NCBI GenBank assembly: GCA_001918745.1
Contig: MNGN01000016.1
Coordinates: 1-32,815 of the forward strand
DNA length: 32,815 nt
DNA from: Crenarchaeota archaeon 13_1_40CM_3_52_17
GTDB lineage: Archaea > Thermoproteota > Bathyarchaeia > 40CM-2-53-6
Reading direction: 5' to 3'
The translations under genes were made by a program, and so were the position numbers. How positions within the stretch are numbered: the first letter of the stretch is position 1; each line of letters begins with the position of its first letter. Below are positions 16,602 through 27,428 of the stretch, in pieces. The notes under the pieces were generated by a model, which was not told where the DNA came from, searched no databases, and was given only the letters and a program-made list of their open reading frames with translations.

Positions 16602-16694
16602 ATGAGCGTTGAGAGATTGGATGATACTGTGGCAGCGATTGCTTTCGCTGCTACGGTCATCACCATCGCGGTAGGATTCCTGTTCAATCTCTAG
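16602..16694 (+). CDS. Tiny single-TM membrane peptide
   Basis: A 30-codon frame from ATG 16602 encodes MSVERLDDTVAA followed by a hydrophobic segment (IAFAATVITIAVGFLFNL). This is a short charged head and one membrane helix reaching the end. A TATA-like box about 25 nt upstream and a perfect tandem repeat before it argue for a real, leaderless gene. It ends overlapping the last codons of the convergent PAC3/4-like gene. Function unknown; it may be a small membrane regulator. Confidence 0.4.
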   Translation: MSVERLDDTVAAIAFAATVITIAVGFLFNL

Positions 16695-17037
16695 CGGAAG
16701 CAGAGTCGGCACTAGAGCTAGACCGGACCTTGTCAAGCAAGCCAGCATAGAGGCGGAGTGCCTCGCCTTCTGAGAGCTTAGTGTTTACCGATACAATGCT
16801 CATCTTGTTGTAGATTGCAGCAACTCTCTCCGATAGAGCCCTTGTGACAATTAGGTATTTTCCTCCGAGGAGAACCGACGAGGTTCCCGCGCCTGCCTCC
16901 GTTAGCCTTGGAGTCGAGACTGCCAAGGTGCCAATTTTCATTGAATCTTCGTAGCAGAACGCCAAGACCGCGTTTTCTAGCTGGAGCAAGCTTACCTTGT
17001 GGACAACGCCATTCTGTTCCAAACTTGCTTCGAGCAA
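16684..17037 (-). CDS. PAC3/PAC4-like proteasome assembly chaperone candidate
   Basis: 117-residue soluble protein. KVSLLQLENAVLAFCYEDSMKIG, LAVSTP, then TSSVLLGG, a helix (VTRALSERVAAIYNK) and MSIVSVNTKL reproduce the order seen in eukaryotic PAC3/PAC4 proteins: strands, an ss.LLG motif, a LA.RL-like helix, a VS.N strand and a C-terminal helix. The PAC2-family chaperone gene lies directly upstream, 110 bases away on the same strand, which strengthens the guess. The start is TTG at 17037; there is no ATG between it and the in-frame TGA, and a TATA-like TTTTATAG sits about 40 nt upstream. The family match is by eye and could be another small alpha/beta fold. Confidence 0.55.
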   Translation of the reverse strand: MLEASLEQNGVVHKVSLLQLENAVLAFCYEDSMKIGTLAVSTPRLTEAGAGTSSVLLGGKYLIVTRALSERVAAIYNKMSIVSVNTKLSEGEALRLYAGLLDKVRSSSSADSASARD

Positions 17038-17147
17038 ATCGCTTCAACTCACTCGTTGTGTTCATCTACTATAAAATGAGTGGAAGAAAGAAGAGGCCAT
17101 TTCCAGACCAGGCTAAAATATTTGGAAAGATGGAATTATTATCTCGG

Positions 17148-17936
17148 CTACGTAATGTAGCGATCCTTGCCTTCCTCAGGTTTTTCCTCGCCTTCCTTGG
17201 ACTCTTCAACCTCTGTGTGTCTGAAATGTTCCATCTTCTTGCGCATGTCCTCAATCTCCGTGTCCAACTCTTTCAAGTCTACTGGAATATTCACAAGTCC
17301 CGTCAACATCTGGATCACCGCTCTCGCTGCTTCCAGATCCGGGTAAGCGCCTGTTGTGGCCCCCAAGAGGCCTGCGCATGATAGACTGCGTTGCCGACCT
17401 ATGCCAAGTATCACGCCTGCTGCTCCTGTAACCGCGCCGCCTTTTGCGAGTTTTGCTCCCATCTTTTTCAGACGTTCTCCCAGTAGAGCTTCTCCCACAA
17501 CGGCGTAGACTGCTCCTACATCGTTTCCGGAACGAGTTCCGTATCCACCCATGGTGTAAACGGCTTTGCAGCCGAAGCGCTGCGCAAAGTCGAGAACGAT
17601 GCTTGCCACCTCGTACTGTCCCGTTACACTTGGCTGGGCGTCTCCGGTGAGGAGGATTACGTTGGGGTCTTTTTCACCGTAACCGTAGAATTCGTATCTT
17701 GGAAGGGAGTAGGTTCCATCTTCTGAAATGTTGATGCCGAGGTTGCCATCGGGGAAGAGCAGGTAGCTTGAGTATAATTCCGCCATTTTCACGGGCTTCA
17801 GTTTCTCGATGAAATAGTCCACTGCGACCTTTCCGACATAGCCGAGTCCTGGAAGGCCTTGAATCAGGACGGGCTCCTTTAGTTCCACTTGAGCAAGCTC
17901 GTGTACTCTAGTGTCACTAAGCAATTGAGAAGCCAT
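17148..17936 (-). CDS. PAC2-family proteasome assembly chaperone
   Basis: 262-residue PAC2 (PF09754) protein of the archaeal PbaA/PbaB type, which helps assemble or cap 20S proteasomes. It has LIQGLPGLGYVGKVAVDY at the N-terminus, LLTGDAQPS, YTMGGYGT, and GAAGVILG followed by GLLGATTGAYPDLEAA, all in family order. The C-terminus is a charged coiled region (EIEDMRKKMEHFRH, then EESKEGEEKPEEGKDRYIT). Known archaeal members dock on the proteasome with a C-terminal hydrophobic-Tyr-X tail; here the last three residues are YIT, so the Tyr is one position early and the motif is imperfect. Start ATG at 17936. Confidence 0.9.
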   Translation of the reverse strand: MASQLLSDTRVHELAQVELKEPVLIQGLPGLGYVGKVAVDYFIEKLKPVKMAELYSSYLLFPDGNLGINISEDGTYSLPRYEFYGYGEKDPNVILLTGDAQPSVTGQYEVASIVLDFAQRFGCKAVYTMGGYGTRSGNDVGAVYAVVGEALLGERLKKMGAKLAKGGAVTGAAGVILGIGRQRSLSCAGLLGATTGAYPDLEAARAVIQMLTGLVNIPVDLKELDTEIEDMRKKMEHFRHTEVEESKEGEEKPEEGKDRYIT

Positions 17937-18520: not shown

Positions 18521-18991
18521 ATGAGCTGTGCACCATTTGTATCATCACCCCACGATGTTGTTAAGAAGATGCTGGAGGTTGCAAGAGCAAGCAAGGACGA
18601 TGTTCTCTGCGACCTTGGCTGCGGCGACGGCCGGATACTAACGACAGCGGTCAAAGATTTCGGCATCAAGGCTGCCGTTGGCTACGAGATTAGGGAGGAT
18701 TTGTTCAAGCAGGCCTCTGGAGAAGTTGAAAAGCTCAAGCTAATCGAAAAGGTGCATATTTTCAACAAGGACCTTTTCCAGGCGGACTTGAAAGAGGCCA
18801 CTCTAATTACCTTGTATCTTACGACGTATGCGAATGAGCGGTTGAAGCCGAAGCTGAGATCGGAAGCGCGACCTGGTTCGAGGATTGTAAGTCATGACTT
18901 TATGATTAATGGTTGGAAGCCTTCGCGGAAGGAGAACTATAACGAGCACACGATCTACGTCTACTCGATTCCCGACGCGTATTCGATCTAG
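18521..18991 (+). CDS. aKMT-like class I methyltransferase
   Basis: 156-residue SAM-dependent methyltransferase without extra domains. It has PFVSSPHDVVKKMLEVA, motif I CDLGCGDGRIL (30-40), motif II acid in VGYEIRED (Glu56), and RIVSHDFMINGWKPSR near the C-terminus. These match in order and length the crenarchaeal aKMT lysine methyltransferases, which have a Dot1-like catalytic core and methylate many proteins. The substrate remains an inference. Start ATG at 18521 fits the family N-terminus. Its stop TAG overlaps the stop TAG of the convergent Clp1 gene within a single CTAG. A 6-bp inverted repeat CGTTCC-N14-GGAACG (18480-18505) lies just upstream. Confidence 0.78.
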   Translation: MSCAPFVSSPHDVVKKMLEVARASKDDVLCDLGCGDGRILTTAVKDFGIKAAVGYEIREDLFKQASGEVEKLKLIEKVHIFNKDLFQADLKEATLITLYLTTYANERLKPKLRSEARPGSRIVSHDFMINGWKPSRKENYNEHTIYVYSIPDAYSI

Positions 18992-20097
18992 GGCTCATAT
19001 CCGACCTCTTCGAATCTTGAAGACAGCATAACTGCTCCAAGTTCTACGGTTCTCGGCCTCGTCTCGGTCGTTGTTGTGACGCGAACGGTACTGTTCCGGA
19101 TTCGGACGATTCTTCCGATCGCGAGTAACATTTCCTTCTCGTCGAGTAGTCCGGCGAGAGTTCCTCTATGTGTTGAAGCTTGATCGATTCTTTGTTGTCG
19201 AGGTTTGTTGAAGGTTCTGAGTTTGATCGTGTTGAGGTTGAGATCTAGATGTTTGGGGTTCTGGAGGAATCTCCTATATCCTTCTTCCCGTGTCCTTTTC
19301 CTTTCTTCCCGGGTTCTTGTCCGGGCGAATGGTGAAGCTTCAAGCCTCAGGGTTGTGTATTGTGACTGCTCAAGGATGGGATCAAGCTCGCTGTTAGAGC
19401 TCAGGCCGAGTACGAGGTTTGGCTGAAGGGAATTTAGGAGCTGGAGCTTGTAGCTGGCCGCTTCCTCGCCTCTTACCCATCCGTCGGTGTTTACGGTTGT
19501 GACGTCGCTTTGCGTTGCGATCTCGTCTTTGAGGTGCGTGATTGATTGTACGAGCTTGGCTGGGACTGAGGAGGGGCTCGTGTCCCCGATGAAGTATGAT
19601 CGCTCCGGTTTCAGGTCCTGAAGGCTGAGGATGTGGTTGGAAACTGTTGAAGAGCTGATAGTCGTTGGTGGACCAATGTCGGCTTGACCAACGTCTCCAT
19701 CAATGATGCTGGTCCTAATTCCTTGGTCAAAGCACTTGTTGGCGAGGTAGGTGGAGAGGGTTGACTTTCCAACATCGACATCTCCCAGAACCACAACCAG
19801 TCCTCGCGATTGTATCAGGATGTCGCCTGCTTCCCGCCAGCTTGTGGGAATGGTCGAGCCGTGGACTTGTCTGTGACCGCCGTCTTCACCTATCTTTATT
19901 CGGAAGACAGCCTCGGTATCGGTCTCAATCGGGATTCTTCTCAGTTTAGGGACAACAATTGGGTCTCCGGTTCGGATTGGAGCGCCCAGCGCCGAGGCTT
20001 GACCTTCCTCGAGAGTTATAGTTGCGGGACCGTCAACAAGTAGGGTATTGCCCGTTTGGAGCCTAGCTTGGGGGAAGTGTCTTCCTCCTAGACAGAG
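18988..20097 (-). CDS. Clp1/Grc3-type polynucleotide 5'-kinase, start codon unclear
   Basis: P-loop kinase of the Clp1/Grc3 family, which phosphorylates 5'-OH RNA or DNA ends. VVVLGDVDVGKSTLSTYLA is the Walker A region, followed by IIDGDVGQADIGPP and YFIGDTSPS, all family hallmarks. A shorter call starting at GTG 19794 begins inside this motif and lacks the strand before the P-loop. The same frame stays open upstream to a TAA at 20098-20100 and encodes the expected N-terminal beta domain (TLLVDGPATITLEEGQ, GDPIVVPKLRRIPIE, STIPTSW). That 101-codon stretch has no ATG, GTG or TTG; an AGGAGG at 20084-20089 precedes CAC/TTC codons. A non-standard start or a sequence error is likely. Confidence 0.82.
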   Translation of the reverse strand, partial: LCLGGRHFPQARLQTGNTLLVDGPATITLEEGQASALGAPIRTGDPIVVPKLRRIPIETDTEAVFRIKIGEDGGHRQVHGSTIPTSWREAGDILIQSRGLVVVLGDVDVGKSTLSTYLANKCFDQGIRTSIIDGDVGQADIGPPTTISSSTVSNHILSLQDLKPERSYFIGDTSPSSVPAKLVQSITHLKDEIATQSDVTTVNTDGWVRGEEAASYKLQLLNSLQPNLVLGLSSNSELDPILEQSQYTTLRLEASPFARTRTREERKRTREEGYRRFLQNPKHLDLNLNTIKLRTFNKPRQQRIDQASTHRGTLAGLLDEKEMLLAIGRIVRIRNSTVRVTTTTETRPRTVELGAVMLSSRFEEVGYEP

Positions 20098-20153
20098 TTA
20101 TTCAATCCCTGCCAGACTTTCGCTCTCGATAACAAGTCGGTAGGGTCTTGATT

Positions 20154-20834
20154 ATGGAAAGGTTGAGCACGGGGGTTAGCGGGCTGGACCGGTTGCTGAA
20201 GGGCGGCTATACCATTCGAACGATCAACTTGGTCTACGGGGAGGCGTCGACTGGGAAGACTGTTCTGTCGATGCAATCCGCTCTGGCGGCGGCGGCGAGG
20301 GGCTTGAAGGTTTTCTTCGTCGATGCTGATCTCTCCTTCTCCGTTCAGAGGCTTGAATCGCTCGATCGAGGGAAAGAGCTTGCTGAGAATGTTGTAGTGT
20401 TTCAGCCCGAGGAGTTTCGTGAACAGATCCGGATCACGGAAAGCCTCGAGGTCCTGTTGTCTAAGACCCCGGCTTTGTTGGTGGTTGACTCGATGACTGG
20501 TCTCTACCGTGCTGATCTAGAGAAGCCTGGGACGGTTTTTGTTAACAATCGTGAGCTTAACAGGCAGCTTGCTTATCTCTCCGATCTCGCTTCGAGGTTC
20601 GAGCTTACTATCTTGTTGACCGGGCAGGTTCACAGCCAGCCTAGCCGTGGAAGCTGGCTTATCGCGCCTGTTGCGACTAGGTCGCTTAGACACTGGTCGT
20701 CAACGATCTTGAGATTGCGCCAGACGCCTCGGAGAGATGTGAGAGAGTGCATTGCGGAGAAGATGGATGGTCGAGAGGTTACTGGTCCGAGGGTGCTTTT
20801 CAGGATCGGTAATGCGGGGATAGAGGATGTGTAG
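20154..20834 (+). CDS. radB: RadB-like RecA-family ATPase
   Basis: 226 residues from ATG 20154 (TTG 20148 is also in frame). A RecA-core ATPase without the helix-hairpin-helix N-domain of RadA, as in RadB. It has RLSTGVSGLDRLLKGG, Walker A GEASTGKT (29-36), FVDADLSFS, Walker B ALLVVDSMTGLYR, a LLTGQVHSQ strand and a terminal RIGNAGIEDV strand. RadB is a recombination mediator that assists RadA in archaea. It is divergent from the Clp1 gene, and their 5' ends lie within about 60 bases. Archaeal KaiC-like paralogs share the fold, but size and motifs favour RadB. Confidence 0.82.
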   Translation: MERLSTGVSGLDRLLKGGYTIRTINLVYGEASTGKTVLSMQSALAAAARGLKVFFVDADLSFSVQRLESLDRGKELAENVVVFQPEEFREQIRITESLEVLLSKTPALLVVDSMTGLYRADLEKPGTVFVNNRELNRQLAYLSDLASRFELTILLTGQVHSQPSRGSWLIAPVATRSLRHWSSTILRLRQTPRRDVRECIAEKMDGREVTGPRVLFRIGNAGIEDV

Positions 20835-23125: not shown

Positions 23126-24526
23126 CTAGAAGGGAGAGACGCTTGTGAAGTTAAAGTCCCTCGCTAGGATCCCGGGTTGGAGGATTCTGAATTGCTGGGC
23201 CTCGGAGAAGTTTCGCACGGGCTCTGAGACGGCGTCGATCTTGTTGAACAATTCCAGGAGGCTCTGGTTGAACCGGAGGTTCTTAACCGGTCTCTTGATC
23301 TCGCCATTCTCAACCAAGAAGGTTCCGTCTCTGGTCATGCCTGTCACTGTCTTGGTCTGAGGCTCTGTTTCCCGTACGTACCAGAAGCGGGTGATCAATA
23401 GGCCCTTGTCAAGTTCTCCAATTAGCTCCTCCGAGGTCTTGGTGGCTCCTTTGCCTCGAATTACCAGATTGGTCGGCAGCTCACCCAGAGGGTTTGGCAA
23501 GGGTAGCTCGTGACCTGTCGGGGCTACTCCATAGCGGTGCTGAGATATTCTGGAGGAGACTACGTTTCGAAAGACCCCGTTCTCGACTAGCGAGACTTTG
23601 CTCTTCTGGCAGCCTTCCCCGTCGAAGGGTGGACCGGCCTGGTTTGGATGGTACACGTCATCATCGATGCTTATGTTGTCTCCGAGAATCTTCTCTCCGA
23701 GTCTACCGGAGAGGTAGCTTCTGCCTTCCTTGTACTGTCGCATTCCAAGATCGGGGCTATAGCCGGTGGACGCGGATACGGCGAAGAAAATGAGCATCTC
23801 GCTCCATGCGTAGGGATCGACAACAACATCGAACTTTCCAGGGGCGATGTCTGCCTGGTTCTTGTTCAACTTGGCCCTTTCAAGCGCTGTCTGTGAGACA
23901 CTGTTAGGATCCAGCTCGCCAATATCACTAAACGTTGACAGCGCGTAACCGGTCTGGTTACCGTTGTCAGCGTCCATTGTCAACGAGAAGTATCCACCCG
24001 ATCCCCGATAGGATGCTTCCAGTCCGGATGTGTTGAGCATCATTACATGCTCGACGCTGGTTCCGAGAACCCCAGAAGCGAGAAGATGGTTTTTCTTGGC
24101 CAGATCGATAGCGGATCCGATATGGCCTGCTTTCAGCTCAGCCGGAGCCTCGACAGTTTTCTCGCTGTATCGGTCGACTGAGCGGTATTTCTGTGAGCCC
24201 GGCATCGGCAGATAATCCGGGTCTTCCGGCGACTCGCGGGCCTGGCGGAGAGCCTTCTCTACAGTCCTCTCAATAGAGGCCTTGTCCAAGGTGCCTGTTG
24301 TGACTCGTCCCTGTTTCTTTTCGGACGCGATCCTCACGGACAGGTTTCTGCTGGTGCTGTACTGTGATTGTGCTAGTTCGTTGTTCCCAAATCGTAGGTA
24401 CTCGTCAACTCGCGACACGAGCATTATCTCTGCCTCAGCCTTGCCTGCAACGGTTTTTGCGGTGGTGAAGATCTGGTGGGCTCTTTCTCTGAGCAGAACA
24501 CGCGGGTGTTCCATCTTTTGCGACAT
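23126..24526 (-). CDS. TldE/PmbA-type peptidase subunit
   Basis: 466-residue protein of the TldE/PmbA family (PF01523). It lacks the HExxxH zinc site and acts as partner of TldD. Family features include EIMLVSRVDEYLRFGNNELAQS near the N-terminus, FDVVVDPYAWSEMLIFFA in place of the metal region, DDDVYHPNQAGPPFDGEGC, and WYVRETEPQTKTVTGMTRDGTFLVENGEI near the C-terminus. In bacteria the heterodimer degrades unfolded or leader peptides. The gene starts 2 bases after the TldD stop, so the two are co-transcribed and probably translated together. Start ATG at 24526. Confidence 0.9.
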   Translation of the reverse strand: MSQKMEHPRVLLRERAHQIFTTAKTVAGKAEAEIMLVSRVDEYLRFGNNELAQSQYSTSRNLSVRIASEKKQGRVTTGTLDKASIERTVEKALRQARESPEDPDYLPMPGSQKYRSVDRYSEKTVEAPAELKAGHIGSAIDLAKKNHLLASGVLGTSVEHVMMLNTSGLEASYRGSGGYFSLTMDADNGNQTGYALSTFSDIGELDPNSVSQTALERAKLNKNQADIAPGKFDVVVDPYAWSEMLIFFAVSASTGYSPDLGMRQYKEGRSYLSGRLGEKILGDNISIDDDVYHPNQAGPPFDGEGCQKSKVSLVENGVFRNVVSSRISQHRYGVAPTGHELPLPNPLGELPTNLVIRGKGATKTSEELIGELDKGLLITRFWYVRETEPQTKTVTGMTRDGTFLVENGEIKRPVKNLRFNQSLLELFNKIDAVSEPVRNFSEAQQFRILQPGILARDFNFTSVSPF

Positions 24527-24528
24527 GG

Positions 24529-26001
24529 CTAAGATGCTCCAAAAACCCGGATGTTCCTGAATCTGCTAGGTGAGGCTCCATGTCCCGTGATCATTGTCTG
24601 CCCGGGCTGGCCTTTTCCGCAATTCGGCGTTCCCCAAAGCACCCAGCTCTTCTTGTTGGCAATGGCATCGCAGGAATTCCAGAACTCCGGCGTTATGCCA
24701 GCGTAGGTAGGTCCTCTGACCATTTCTCCAATGCTTCCGTTCTTTATCCTGTAGCCTTTTTCGGTGTTGAACTGGAAGTTGTACCTCTTCTGGTCGATGC
24801 TCCAACCATAGTTTGTGACCATGAGGTATCCGTCGCGGGTATCTTCGATCATCTCGTCATAGTCCCAGTCTCCTGGTTCGAGACTGACGTTTGTCATTCT
24901 GATTATTGGAAGCTTGTAGTATTCTGCTCGCATGCACCCGTTACTTCGGCTCTCGCCAACTCTCGGGGCAGTTTCCCGGGACATAAGATAACCGACAAAT
25001 TTTCCGTTCTTGACTGCATATTTTCGCTGGGCTTTTACTCCCTCGTCATCGTAGCCGAAGGTTCCCAGTCCGTTACCATGGTCGAGGGTTGCATCCATTA
25101 CTATGTTCACGTGTTCTGAGCCGTACTGGAGTTTTCCGAGTTGGTCTGGTTGGAGAAAGCTTCGGCCTGCGAAGTTAGCCTCGTAACCTAGAACCCTGTC
25201 GAGCTCTATTGGGTGGCCGCAGGACTCGTGCACCTGCAACGCAACCTGGTCTCCGCTGAGAATAATGTCTGATTTTCCTTCGCCAATAGTGGGGGCATGA
25301 GTCAGCGCTAGGACGTCTTTCGTGATCTCAAGTGCTTGTGCGGGAAGGTCCATCTCGTCCACGAGCTCGTAGCCGCCACCACTATTCTGTTGAACTGATC
25401 GCCTCTGGACACCGGTCGGGCCCTTGGCGGCAACAATTGCAGATACGCCTGCGTAGGAGTGAGTTTGGAATATCTTCGACCCTTCTGAGTTCGCGAAATA
25501 TTTCTCGATAAAATCGAACGTCATCTGGCCTCTTCTTGCCACGACGTCGTTTTCCTTCATCCTCTTGGTTGTTTCCTGAAGAACTTCGTACTTGGTTTCG
25601 GTCGGGACGCGGAACGGGTCCTTCTTGACTGGTGTTGCCCACTTGTCGACATGAGCAGGCTCAGAGGCCCGAGTGACTTTTATCCCGAGTTTTGACGCGC
25701 CCCTGGCGAGAGCGAGGGCCTTCTTGGTTGTTTCTCTTATGCTGTCATGTTCAAGTTCATCGGTGTCGGCGAATCCCCAGCCCAGATCCTTGTAGAGAAC
25801 ACGAATTCCTACCCCGATTGTGCTCGCTTCTTCGCTGGCTGGGTTCTCGTTGACGACTGTAACAGCTTCGGATCGTGTGTTAACGAGCCTCAGCTCGGCA
25901 TAGCTTGCGTTGTCTCGCTTGGCAAGGTCAAAAGATATCTTCGCCAGTTCTTCCCCAAGGTCCTTGGTAGAAATCACGGAATCGTGATTGGAAACGGTCA
26001 C
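24529..26001 (-). CDS. tldD: TldD-type zinc metallopeptidase
   Basis: 490-residue catalytic partner of TldE. The zinc motif HExxxH is HESCGH (258-263), followed by IELDRVLGYEANFAGRSFL. The C-terminal WGTPNCGKGQPGQTMITGHGAS carries the conserved Cys proposed as the third ligand. The complex is an ATP-independent cytoplasmic protease; in bacteria it matures peptides such as microcin B17 and CcdA is a substrate. No peptide-modification genes are nearby, so a housekeeping role is likely. The start is GTG at 26001, with a TTCATTATCG TATA-like box about 29 nt upstream. Confidence 0.93.
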   Translation of the reverse strand: MTVSNHDSVISTKDLGEELAKISFDLAKRDNASYAELRLVNTRSEAVTVVNENPASEEASTIGVGIRVLYKDLGWGFADTDELEHDSIRETTKKALALARGASKLGIKVTRASEPAHVDKWATPVKKDPFRVPTETKYEVLQETTKRMKENDVVARRGQMTFDFIEKYFANSEGSKIFQTHSYAGVSAIVAAKGPTGVQRRSVQQNSGGGYELVDEMDLPAQALEITKDVLALTHAPTIGEGKSDIILSGDQVALQVHESCGHPIELDRVLGYEANFAGRSFLQPDQLGKLQYGSEHVNIVMDATLDHGNGLGTFGYDDEGVKAQRKYAVKNGKFVGYLMSRETAPRVGESRSNGCMRAEYYKLPIIRMTNVSLEPGDWDYDEMIEDTRDGYLMVTNYGWSIDQKRYNFQFNTEKGYRIKNGSIGEMVRGPTYAGITPEFWNSCDAIANKKSWVLWGTPNCGKGQPGQTMITGHGASPSRFRNIRVFGAS

Positions 26002-26087: not shown

Positions 26088-27428
26088 CTAGTTGAATTGG
26101 CTGATTTTCCGCTGGAAATACGCGTTCTGGAGGAGCGCCGAGGTTTCTATCCAACCACGCTTCGGTATCTCAAAAATACTGCTCACATAATTCAAGGCGG
26201 CTTCCATGGAGTCGAATCTTTCAAACGGTGTCCTAAGGAGCACCCGAAGACTTTCTCTAACATTCCAAACCCCGACAGGCATTATGTAGCCGGGATGAAT
26301 TTCCCTCAACATTATTGCCCCCGCTTGCTTTCCGATCGAGTCCAGATACTCAGAAACCGCAAGTCTTGCTGAGTAGTAGCAACCGCCCGGCTTCGCGTAG
26401 GTCTTTCGTCCTCGGAATCCTTCCGAATCGCCAAGCATGACTGGCCGGTATCCTTTCGGAGAAACATAGCTGCTCTTCTCCACGTCCTCAGCCATATTCA
26501 CGTCGGGAAAACTAGTGGCGAGCAGCTCTGGTTCGAACCAGGCCTCGATCCACTCGAACTTCCAGTGTTCAGGAGTAAGAAGTCCTACGTAGATATTATC
26601 GAGATACGTGTATTTGTAAACGCGGAATTCGTCTATGAGAGGATGATGTCTTACTCGGGACATTAGCTTGAGGCTGAGGTTGCTGTCTACCGCGGTTATG
26701 CTCCACCGTGTTGGGACAAGCTTGCGTCTCTTGCTCTCCCCAAACATCCCGAGGCTAAACGCTCGCTGAATGCGAGTCACCAAGACACCGTTTCTGTAGA
26801 GCTGCAGGACAGCATCGTCGGCCGGGAGATCGCCATCGTAGAACGCTTTCTCGATCCTATCGTCAACGGAGGAGTTGCCAGCATGAAACGAGGTGAGGGG
26901 TGCAATAGGACCGAAGGGCTGGGAGTCCTCTCGCATATCCAATATTTTTCGGGGCGGCCGAGACAGGACGAGTTCTGTGTCAACAGGTTTTGTCATCATT
27001 GCAACCTCATGCAAGGTCTCGATCAATCTGCCTCCCTTCTGAGCGTCCGAGACGTTCGCCTTGCTGTAGCCTCGAAGCAAACTGTATCTGAAATCTACGA
27101 TCTCATCGAAGCCCTTGCCCATCCACCATTCAGGAGTGTCAAGAATCTCGGTGTCGCCGGAAATCGATGGCACCATAGGTCCGACGTTGACGTTCGGATA
27201 CCCGAATCTCCCTACAAAGACTCCTGGAGGACTGGACCCCGCGATGGATTTTAGGTCGAACTCGGGATGATGTGCAGCCAAAGACTCAGCTTTGACGTGT
27301 ATGGCGCACTTCTTCTCCCCGGATAGCCTTCTAACTCTCAGGCACATTGGACAAAGCTTCTCGGAGGAAGAGACCAGGTCGGCACGTTGCGAAATACCTC
27401 TACCAAACGAGCCGAACATGTCCATCAA
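26088..27428 (-). CDS. nreA: Archaeal DNA repair protein NreA
   Basis: 446-residue Nre-family protein (DUF650/DUF651). The N-terminal zinc-binding motif is Cys26-x2-Cys29-x11-Cys41-x2-His44. PPGVFVGRFGYPNVNVGPMVP follows, a family hallmark, then DFRYSLLRGYSK and LVPTRWSITAVDSNLS. The C-terminal domain has RVYKYTYLDNIYVGLLTPEHW and YYSARLAVSEYL-like blocks. Nre proteins act in DNA damage resistance and carry a C-terminal PCNA-interacting (PIP) motif. Here the end reads QRKISQFN, with Gln, Ile and Phe in place but Asn where a second aromatic is expected. Start ATG at 27428. Confidence 0.88.
   Translation of the reverse strand: MMDMFGSFGRGISQRADLVSSSEKLCPMCLRVRRLSGEKKCAIHVKAESLAAHHPEFDLKSIAGSSPPGVFVGRFGYPNVNVGPMVPSISGDTEILDTPEWWMGKGFDEIVDFRYSLLRGYSKANVSDAQKGGRLIETLHEVAMMTKPVDTELVLSRPPRKILDMREDSQPFGPIAPLTSFHAGNSSVDDRIEKAFYDGDLPADDAVLQLYRNGVLVTRIQRAFSLGMFGESKRRKLVPTRWSITAVDSNLSLKLMSRVRHHPLIDEFRVYKYTYLDNIYVGLLTPEHWKFEWIEAWFEPELLATSFPDVNMAEDVEKSSYVSPKGYRPVMLGDSEGFRGRKTYAKPGGCYYSARLAVSEYLDSIGKQAGAIMLREIHPGYIMPVGVWNVRESLRVLLRTPFERFDSMEAALNYVSSIFEIPKRGWIETSALLQNAYFQRKISQFN

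What the first reader, a model, noticed from the sequence alone, without database searches (positions are those of the whole stretch)
16684..17936. PAC3/PAC4-like protein encoded beside a PAC2-family proteasome chaperone
The 117-residue protein shows a TSSVLLGG strand-turn, a helix and a VSVN strand in the order of eukaryotic PAC3/PAC4, and sits immediately downstream of a PAC2 gene. Archaeal chaperones known to me are of PAC2 type (PbaA, PbaB). A PAC2 plus PAC3/4 pair in one archaeal operon would mirror the two eukaryotic heterodimers and bear on the origin of eukaryotic proteasome assembly.
Basis: partly seen in the sequence, partly recalled or inferred. Interest (0 to 1): 0.6.

Follow-up and report, generated by a model that had tools for sequence, protein, structure and literature searches.

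The report
Archaeal PAC3/PAC4-like proteasome chaperone homologue
A small, strongly conserved archaeal protein, encoded right behind a PAC2 proteasome-chaperone gene, is a true relative of the eukaryotic proteasome assembly factors PAC3 and PAC4, which reviews treat as eukaryotic; relatives sit in Asgard archaea too, so the origin of this step of proteasome assembly can now be tested.

Summary
Window 16684-17037 (-) encodes a 117-aa protein, 110 bp behind a PAC2-family gene (17148-17936, -) on the same strand. It is a conserved single-copy family under purifying selection. Its relation to PAC4 is supported by sequence, not just motif order. A profile made only of archaeal members finds human PAC4 in the PDB at E=2.8e-8, with no other protein up to E=10. 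Human PAC4 and human PAC3, as single queries, each return members of this one archaeal family as best hits. The family occurs in 56 of 61 relatives, in a second group of the phylum and in 102 of 195 genomes of the Asgard phylum. Reviews that I read do not mention it. Function is less certain. Bacterial LpdD, a prenyl-FMN chaperone for UbiD, has the same fold, and the archaeal gene lies beside UbiX/UbiD in many lineages. But the window's genus has no detectable UbiD, keeps the gene, and has it beside PAC2. In two divergent Asgard lineages it follows a proteasome subunit gene. I favour a proteasome-assembly role (about 0.55); an ancestral UbiD-linked role is the main rival. No usable structure model could be made.

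The parts
16684..17037 (-). PAC3/PAC4-like protein, 117 aa, TTG start; conserved core N22, G36-T37, P43, S53, G58, E70, S83
   Evidence: ORF; conservation; homology to PAC4; dN/dS 0.11
16783..16992 (-). Stretch of the protein (residues 16-85) matched by the Pfam PAC4 model PF16093, E=0.0017, 18.7 bits, below the curated cut-off of 31
17148..17936 (-). PAC2-family protein, 262 aa (TIGR00162-like), C-terminal tail ending GKDRYIT, invariant in the paired loci of the window's family; not a canonical HbYX end
   Evidence: PF09754 E=2.6e-37; TIGR00162 E=1.7e-45; tails
17038..17147 (-). Intergenic gap PAC2 to PAC4-like; contains TTTATAG on the minus strand, which could be a promoter, so co-transcription in the window itself is not proven
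   Evidence: sequence; gaps in relatives about 5-110 bp

Best explanation
The protein is an archaeal member of the PAC3/PAC4 superfamily: a small beta-sandwich chaperone, most likely a homodimer, of the kind from which eukaryotic PAC3 and PAC4 descend by duplication. In the window's lineage it is made with a PAC2-family protein, and the two most likely act on proteasome assembly. By analogy, the PAC2 protein works from the outer face of the alpha ring through its C-terminal tails, and the PAC3/4-like dimer from the inner (beta-facing) face, holding alpha subunits and keeping beta subunits off until the ring is closed. Shown here: homology, single copy, conservation, linkage to PAC2 in this family, linkage to proteasome subunit genes in two Asgard lineages, retention where UbiD is absent. 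Inferred: fold, homodimer, binding to alpha subunits, order of events. Homology alone I hold at about 0.93; the proteasome role at the confidence given.
For: Archaea-only profile to human PAC4 E=2.8e-8, the only protein hit in the PDB; a profile of Asgard members alone also finds PAC4 first, E=2.6e-5. Human PAC4 as query: 143 of 161 hits among 6837 ORFs are this family, best E=1.4e-6. Human PAC3: 33 of 41, best E=3.5e-4, top hits Asgard members. 40 of 44 window-class members and 25 of 25 Asgard members hit PF16093; 10 of 25 Asgard members also hit the PAC3 model weakly. PAC2 is next to it in 19 of 20 loci of the window's family. A proteasome subunit gene is directly upstream in L189, and two genes upstream in L180/L181; these copies share only 22% identity, so they are separate lineages. 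UbiD is not detected in any of the 18 genomes of the genus and in 20 of 21 of the family, including genomes 92-95% complete, while the gene is kept. A review places PAC3-4 on the inner alpha-ring face in eukaryotes (PMC13022661).
Against: Archaeal proteasomes assemble without help in vitro (PMC13022661). The commonest ancient neighbours are UbiD/UbiX, not proteasome genes. The window protein alone is below the Pfam PAC4 cut-off (18.7 against 31 bits). The PAC2 tail is not HbYX, and the euryarchaeal PAC2 protein PbaA does not bind the mature proteasome (PMC3605417, PMC6992696). No structure model of use. Many archaea with proteasomes, such as most other families of the phylum, lack the gene.
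Confidence: 0.55

Rival explanations
1. The family is a cofactor chaperone of the LpdD kind: it binds reduced prenyl-FMN made by UbiX and delivers it to the archaeal UbiD decarboxylase. Eukaryotes later reused the fold for the proteasome.
For: LpdD has the Pba3/4 fold, is dimeric, binds prenyl-FMNH2 and activates UbiD (PMC10865409). The archaeal gene lies beside UbiD and/or UbiX in the window's class, a second group of the phylum and Asgard genomes, often overlapping, and within 30 kb of UbiD in 42 of 45 Asgard-phylum genomes with both on one contig. Asgard member L146 reaches the LpdD-type Pfam model PF21758 at 28.8 bits, cut-off 27.
Against: UbiD is not found in 20 of 21 genomes of the window's family, though the gene is in all of them. 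In the Asgard phylum 14 of 102 carriers lack UbiD and co-occurrence is not significant, Fisher p=0.19. The LpdD metal ligands His61 and Asp63 are not present at the aligned place (LpdD-like HKD against GKY or DRN). LpdD as query finds the two separate Asgard LpdD-type genes (E=2.8e-9, 1.8e-8), not this family (best 0.93).
Confidence: 0.22
2. The protein is a partner of the PAC2 protein in a proteasome-independent complex, as PF0014 is of PbaA in Pyrococcus, where the two form a 10:10 cage.
For: PbaA and PF0014 are co-transcribed and form a cage thought to act apart from the proteasome (PMC6992696). The window's PAC2 is TIGR00162-like and lacks an HbYX end. PAC2 and the 117-aa gene are paired in one family only.
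Against: PF0014 was modelled as a three-stranded sheet with five helices, not the PAC3/4 fold (PMC6992696). Elsewhere the family exists without a PAC2 neighbour, so a PAC2 next door cannot be its only context.
Confidence: 0.15
3. The resemblance to PAC3/PAC4 is chance convergence of a short strand-turn-helix-strand.
For: The protein is short; the single-sequence Pfam hit is below cut-off.
Against: E=2.8e-8 in an independent database with no other protein hit, repeated with a separate Asgard profile, and reciprocal.
Confidence: 0.03

Closest known systems
Eukaryotic PAC4 / Pba4 (PSMG4, Pfam PF16093)
   Same: Same order of motifs (S-S-x-L-L-G, L-A-x-R-L-A, N-K-x-x-x-V-S), similar length; best sequence match by far
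   Different: Archaeal family keeps G-T and P, which human PAC4 has lost; single gene, no PAC3 partner gene found; window protein below the curated cut-off
Eukaryotic PAC3 / Pba3 (PSMG3, Pfam PF10178)
   Same: K-[MLI]-G-T-L and V-L-L-G shared; human PAC3 finds Asgard members first
   Different: Weak at profile level (E 0.016 at best; no genome over cut-off)
LpdD, prenyl-FMNH2-binding chaperone (Pfam PF21758 PAC_bac; PDB 8P4W)
   Same: Its structure paper reports the Pba3/4 fold; UbiX/UbiD neighbourhood shared with many archaeal members
   Different: Sequence distant; metal site not conserved; window lineage has no detectable UbiD; true LpdD-type genes exist separately in two Asgard-phylum genomes (L209, L210)
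Archaeal PAC2 proteins PbaA and PbaB (PF09754)
   Same: The neighbour gene 17148-17936 belongs here
   Different: Different, larger fold; this is the known archaeal chaperone type, the 117-aa protein is not

Membership tests
PAC4 (PF16093) | Match over the curated Pfam cut-off of 31 bits | tested here: not met
   Window protein 18.7 bits, E=0.0017; relatives over the cut-off in 11 of 101 genomes
PAC4 (PF16093) | Profile-level homology to a solved PAC4 | tested here: met
   Archaea-only profile A1 against PDB: 5WTQ and 8QYJ, E=2.8e-8 and 3.3e-8, no other hit to E=10
PAC3/PAC4 fold | Predicted or solved PAC3/4 topology | tested here: inconclusive
PAC3-PAC4 heterodimer | Two different genes, PAC3-like and PAC4-like | tested here: not met
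   One match per genome in the window's class; the PAC3 model finds no match over cut-off in 195 Asgard-phylum genomes, and several of its weak hits are the same gene
PAC3/PAC4 | Binding to an alpha subunit and role in alpha-ring assembly | not testable with these tools
   Needs biochemistry or complex prediction
PAC3 (PF10178) | Match over the curated cut-off | tested here: not met
   No hit for the window protein at E<=10; weak hits in 10 of 25 Asgard members
LpdD (PF21758) | Match to PAC_bac model | tested here: not met
   No hit for the window protein at E<=10; 12 of 44 members hit at E<=1, best 3.9e-4; at least one Asgard member, L146, over cut-off
LpdD | Metal ligands His35, His61, Asp63 of LpdD | tested here: not met
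   His61/Asp63 position reads GKY or DRN in the archaeal family; His35 could not be placed with certainty
LpdD | A UbiD enzyme to serve | tested here: not met
   PF01977 not detected in G000 or any genus member; G000 itself is only 80% complete, other members up to 95%
PAC2 (neighbour gene) | PF09754 over cut-off | tested here: met
   129.2 bits, cut-off 25.8
PAC2 with proteasome-binding tail | C-terminal HbYX motif | tested here: not met
   Tail ends RYIT; conserved but Tyr is third from the end

The most novel reading that the evidence does not exclude
Archaea of the window's class, a second group of its phylum and Asgard archaea carry the single-copy ancestor of eukaryotic PAC3 and PAC4. 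The fold served a UbiD/prenyl-FMN neighbourhood first and was drawn into proteasome assembly already in archaea, as seen in the window's lineage (UbiD absent, gene kept and paired with PAC2) and in Asgard lineages where it follows a proteasome subunit gene. The eukaryotic PAC3-PAC4 heterodimer then arose by duplication of an Asgard gene.
Probability: 0.35. Interest if true: 0.9.

Novelty: new variant of a known kind. Interest (0 to 1): 0.72.

Why it matters
Reviews describe PAC3-4 as chaperones of eukaryotic proteasomes and say that archaeal proteasomes assemble unaided; none that I read mentions an archaeal PAC3/4. A conserved archaeal homologue, present in Asgard genomes and recognised by both human PAC3 and human PAC4, gives a direct candidate for the ancestor of that step and a simple homomeric system in which to test what PAC3/4 does. 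The link to LpdD and UbiD also raises the question of whether a cofactor chaperone was turned into a protein-assembly chaperone.

Tried and rejected
AlphaFold2 on the window protein alone: pLDDT 40, not used further. NCBIfam gave nothing for the family. A profile of the second group's proteins alone (A2) did not find PAC4 in the PDB, though 8 of its 13 members hit PF16093. Plasmids: no match. A separate Asgard PAC3 gene was looked for and not found. Tree with human PAC3, PAC4 and LpdD: both human sequences fall in the clade that holds the Asgard members (support 0.79), but their exact places have support 0.10-0.14, so no claim is made. Profile comparison with the single human PAC3 sequence was weak. 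Chance resemblance rejected on reciprocal E-values. An LpdD-type function for the window lineage was judged unlikely because UbiD is absent.

Full report
What is there. The window (G000, contig 20, of an incomplete genome, 80% complete) holds an ORF of 117 aa at 16684-17037 on the minus strand, start TTG, 110 bp downstream of a PAC2-family gene at 17148-17936 on the same strand. PAC2 is certain (PF09754, E=2.6e-37; TIGR00162 E=1.7e-45). The 117-aa protein has one hit of note in Pfam, PAC4 at E=0.0017, below the curated cut-off.

It is a real family. Protein search found it once per genome in 56 of 61 relatives. Synonymous changes far outnumber others (median dN/dS 0.11). A 44-member alignment shows N22, G36, S53 and G58 invariant and T37, P43, E70, S83 nearly so.

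It is related to PAC4. A profile built only from these archaeal proteins, searched against all PDB sequences, returns human PAC4 (5WTQ, 8QYJ) at E=2.8e-8 and 3.3e-8 and nothing else up to E=10. Of 44 members 40 hit the PAC4 model, and PAC4 is over its curated cut-off in 11 of 101 genomes of the class. In the reverse direction, human PAC4 as a single query against 6837 ORFs gives this family as the top hits (best 1.4e-6; 143 of 161 hits).

Where it occurs. In a sample of 300 genomes of the phylum 96 have it: the window's class, and several families outside it. The other families of the sample mostly lack it. A Bathyarchaeota-type 16S primer site is found in 15 genomes of the class and in no genome outside it. 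The primer letters are from my memory, and G000 itself shows no site, so the name Bathyarchaeia is likely but not proven; 'Nitrososphaeria' for the second group is my inference from genome size and abundance. An actin search supplied a named Baldrarchaeota contig; its genome has the gene at E=1.5e-15, and 102 of 195 genomes of that phylum have it. Profile comparison of the window-class and Asgard alignments gives E=2.4e-28, and all 25 aligned Asgard members hit PAC4. No separate PAC3-type gene was found there.

Neighbours. The PAC2 pairing holds in 19 of 20 loci of the window's family, with gaps under 30 bp in six of them, and not generally outside it. Elsewhere the recurring neighbours are UbiD (41 loci), an HD hydrolase (54), CLP1 (20) and RadB (17), across three large groups. 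In Asgard genomes UbiX and UbiD can directly follow the gene with overlapping ends (L171), and 42 of 45 genomes with both on one contig have them within 30 kb. In two divergent Asgard lineages a 20S proteasome subunit gene lies directly upstream (L189) or two genes upstream (L180, L181) on the same strand.

The rival that this raised. LpdD, a bacterial prenyl-FMNH2 chaperone that activates UbiD, was solved and found to resemble Pba3-Pba4 most (PMC10865409). Pfam PF21758 corresponds to LpdD. The archaeal family could therefore serve UbiD. Against this, for the window: UbiD is not detected in any of the 18 genomes of the genus and in 20 of 21 of the family, six of them over 90% complete, while every one has the PAC3/4-like gene. 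In the Asgard phylum 14 of 102 carriers have no UbiD, and presence is not associated (Fisher p=0.19). Many genomes have UbiD without the gene. The LpdD metal site is not conserved, and true LpdD-type genes occur separately.

Interpretation. Homology to PAC3/PAC4: about 0.93. A proteasome-assembly role in the window's lineage: about 0.55. It rests on the homology, the PAC2 pairing, the two proteasome linkages and retention without UbiD. It is weakened by spontaneous assembly of archaeal proteasomes in vitro (PMC13022661), by PbaA, which forms a seemingly proteasome-independent cage with another small protein (PMC6992696), and by the non-HbYX tail of the PAC2 protein.

What is known. Archaeal PAC1-PAC2 homologues PbaA and PbaB are published (PMC3605417). 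Two reviews and searches of the held library show no archaeal PAC3/4. The library lacks most subscription journals. Pfam may already list some archaeal proteins under PF16093, so a database label may exist without a publication.

Limits. No usable structure model. The genomes are mostly metagenome-assembled; the pair in 19 genomes makes assembly error unlikely. The tree does not resolve human PAC3 and PAC4.

Noticed in passing
G000-G018 and G020 (window's family): No UbiD-family decarboxylase (PF01977) in 20 of 21 genomes, although UbiD is in 270 of 300 genomes of the phylum. If the archaeal mevalonate route needs a UbiD enzyme, these organisms must make isoprenoids another way.
   Followed up: partly
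L209 (G389:C159) and L210 (G381:C45): Two Asgard-phylum genomes carry a second, LpdD-type gene (PF21758 E=3.5e-29 and 3.4e-33; PDB LpdD E=4e-7 for L210) besides the PAC3/4-like gene.
   Followed up: partly
window 17148-17936 and related loci of the family: The PAC2 protein ends in an invariant GKDRYIT behind a variable acidic linker; other PAC2 copies in the class end in YIS/YIG or in HbYX-type LYV/MYV. The YI[STG] tail may be a second kind of docking signal.
   Followed up: partly
window 18988-20834: A CLP1-type P-loop protein and a RadB-like Rad51 protein near the PAC2/PAC4-like pair; the same genes recur beside the PAC3/4-like gene in other groups, including Asgard (RadB), so this is an old gene neighbourhood.
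   Followed up: partly
L148, L149, L180, L181 and L189: PAC3/4-like gene in a run with a 20S proteasome subunit gene in two divergent Asgard lineages (with an MGMT-like gene and UbiX in one).
   Followed up: yes
window 26088-27428 and 23126-26001: Archaeal Nre protein and two adjacent PmbA/TldD metallopeptidase genes; ordinary, not studied.
   Followed up: no
L131-L135, L138-L140, L142: Bacterial-labelled genome bins carry actin genes 58-93% identical to human actin, probably eukaryotic contamination in those assemblies.
   Followed up: no
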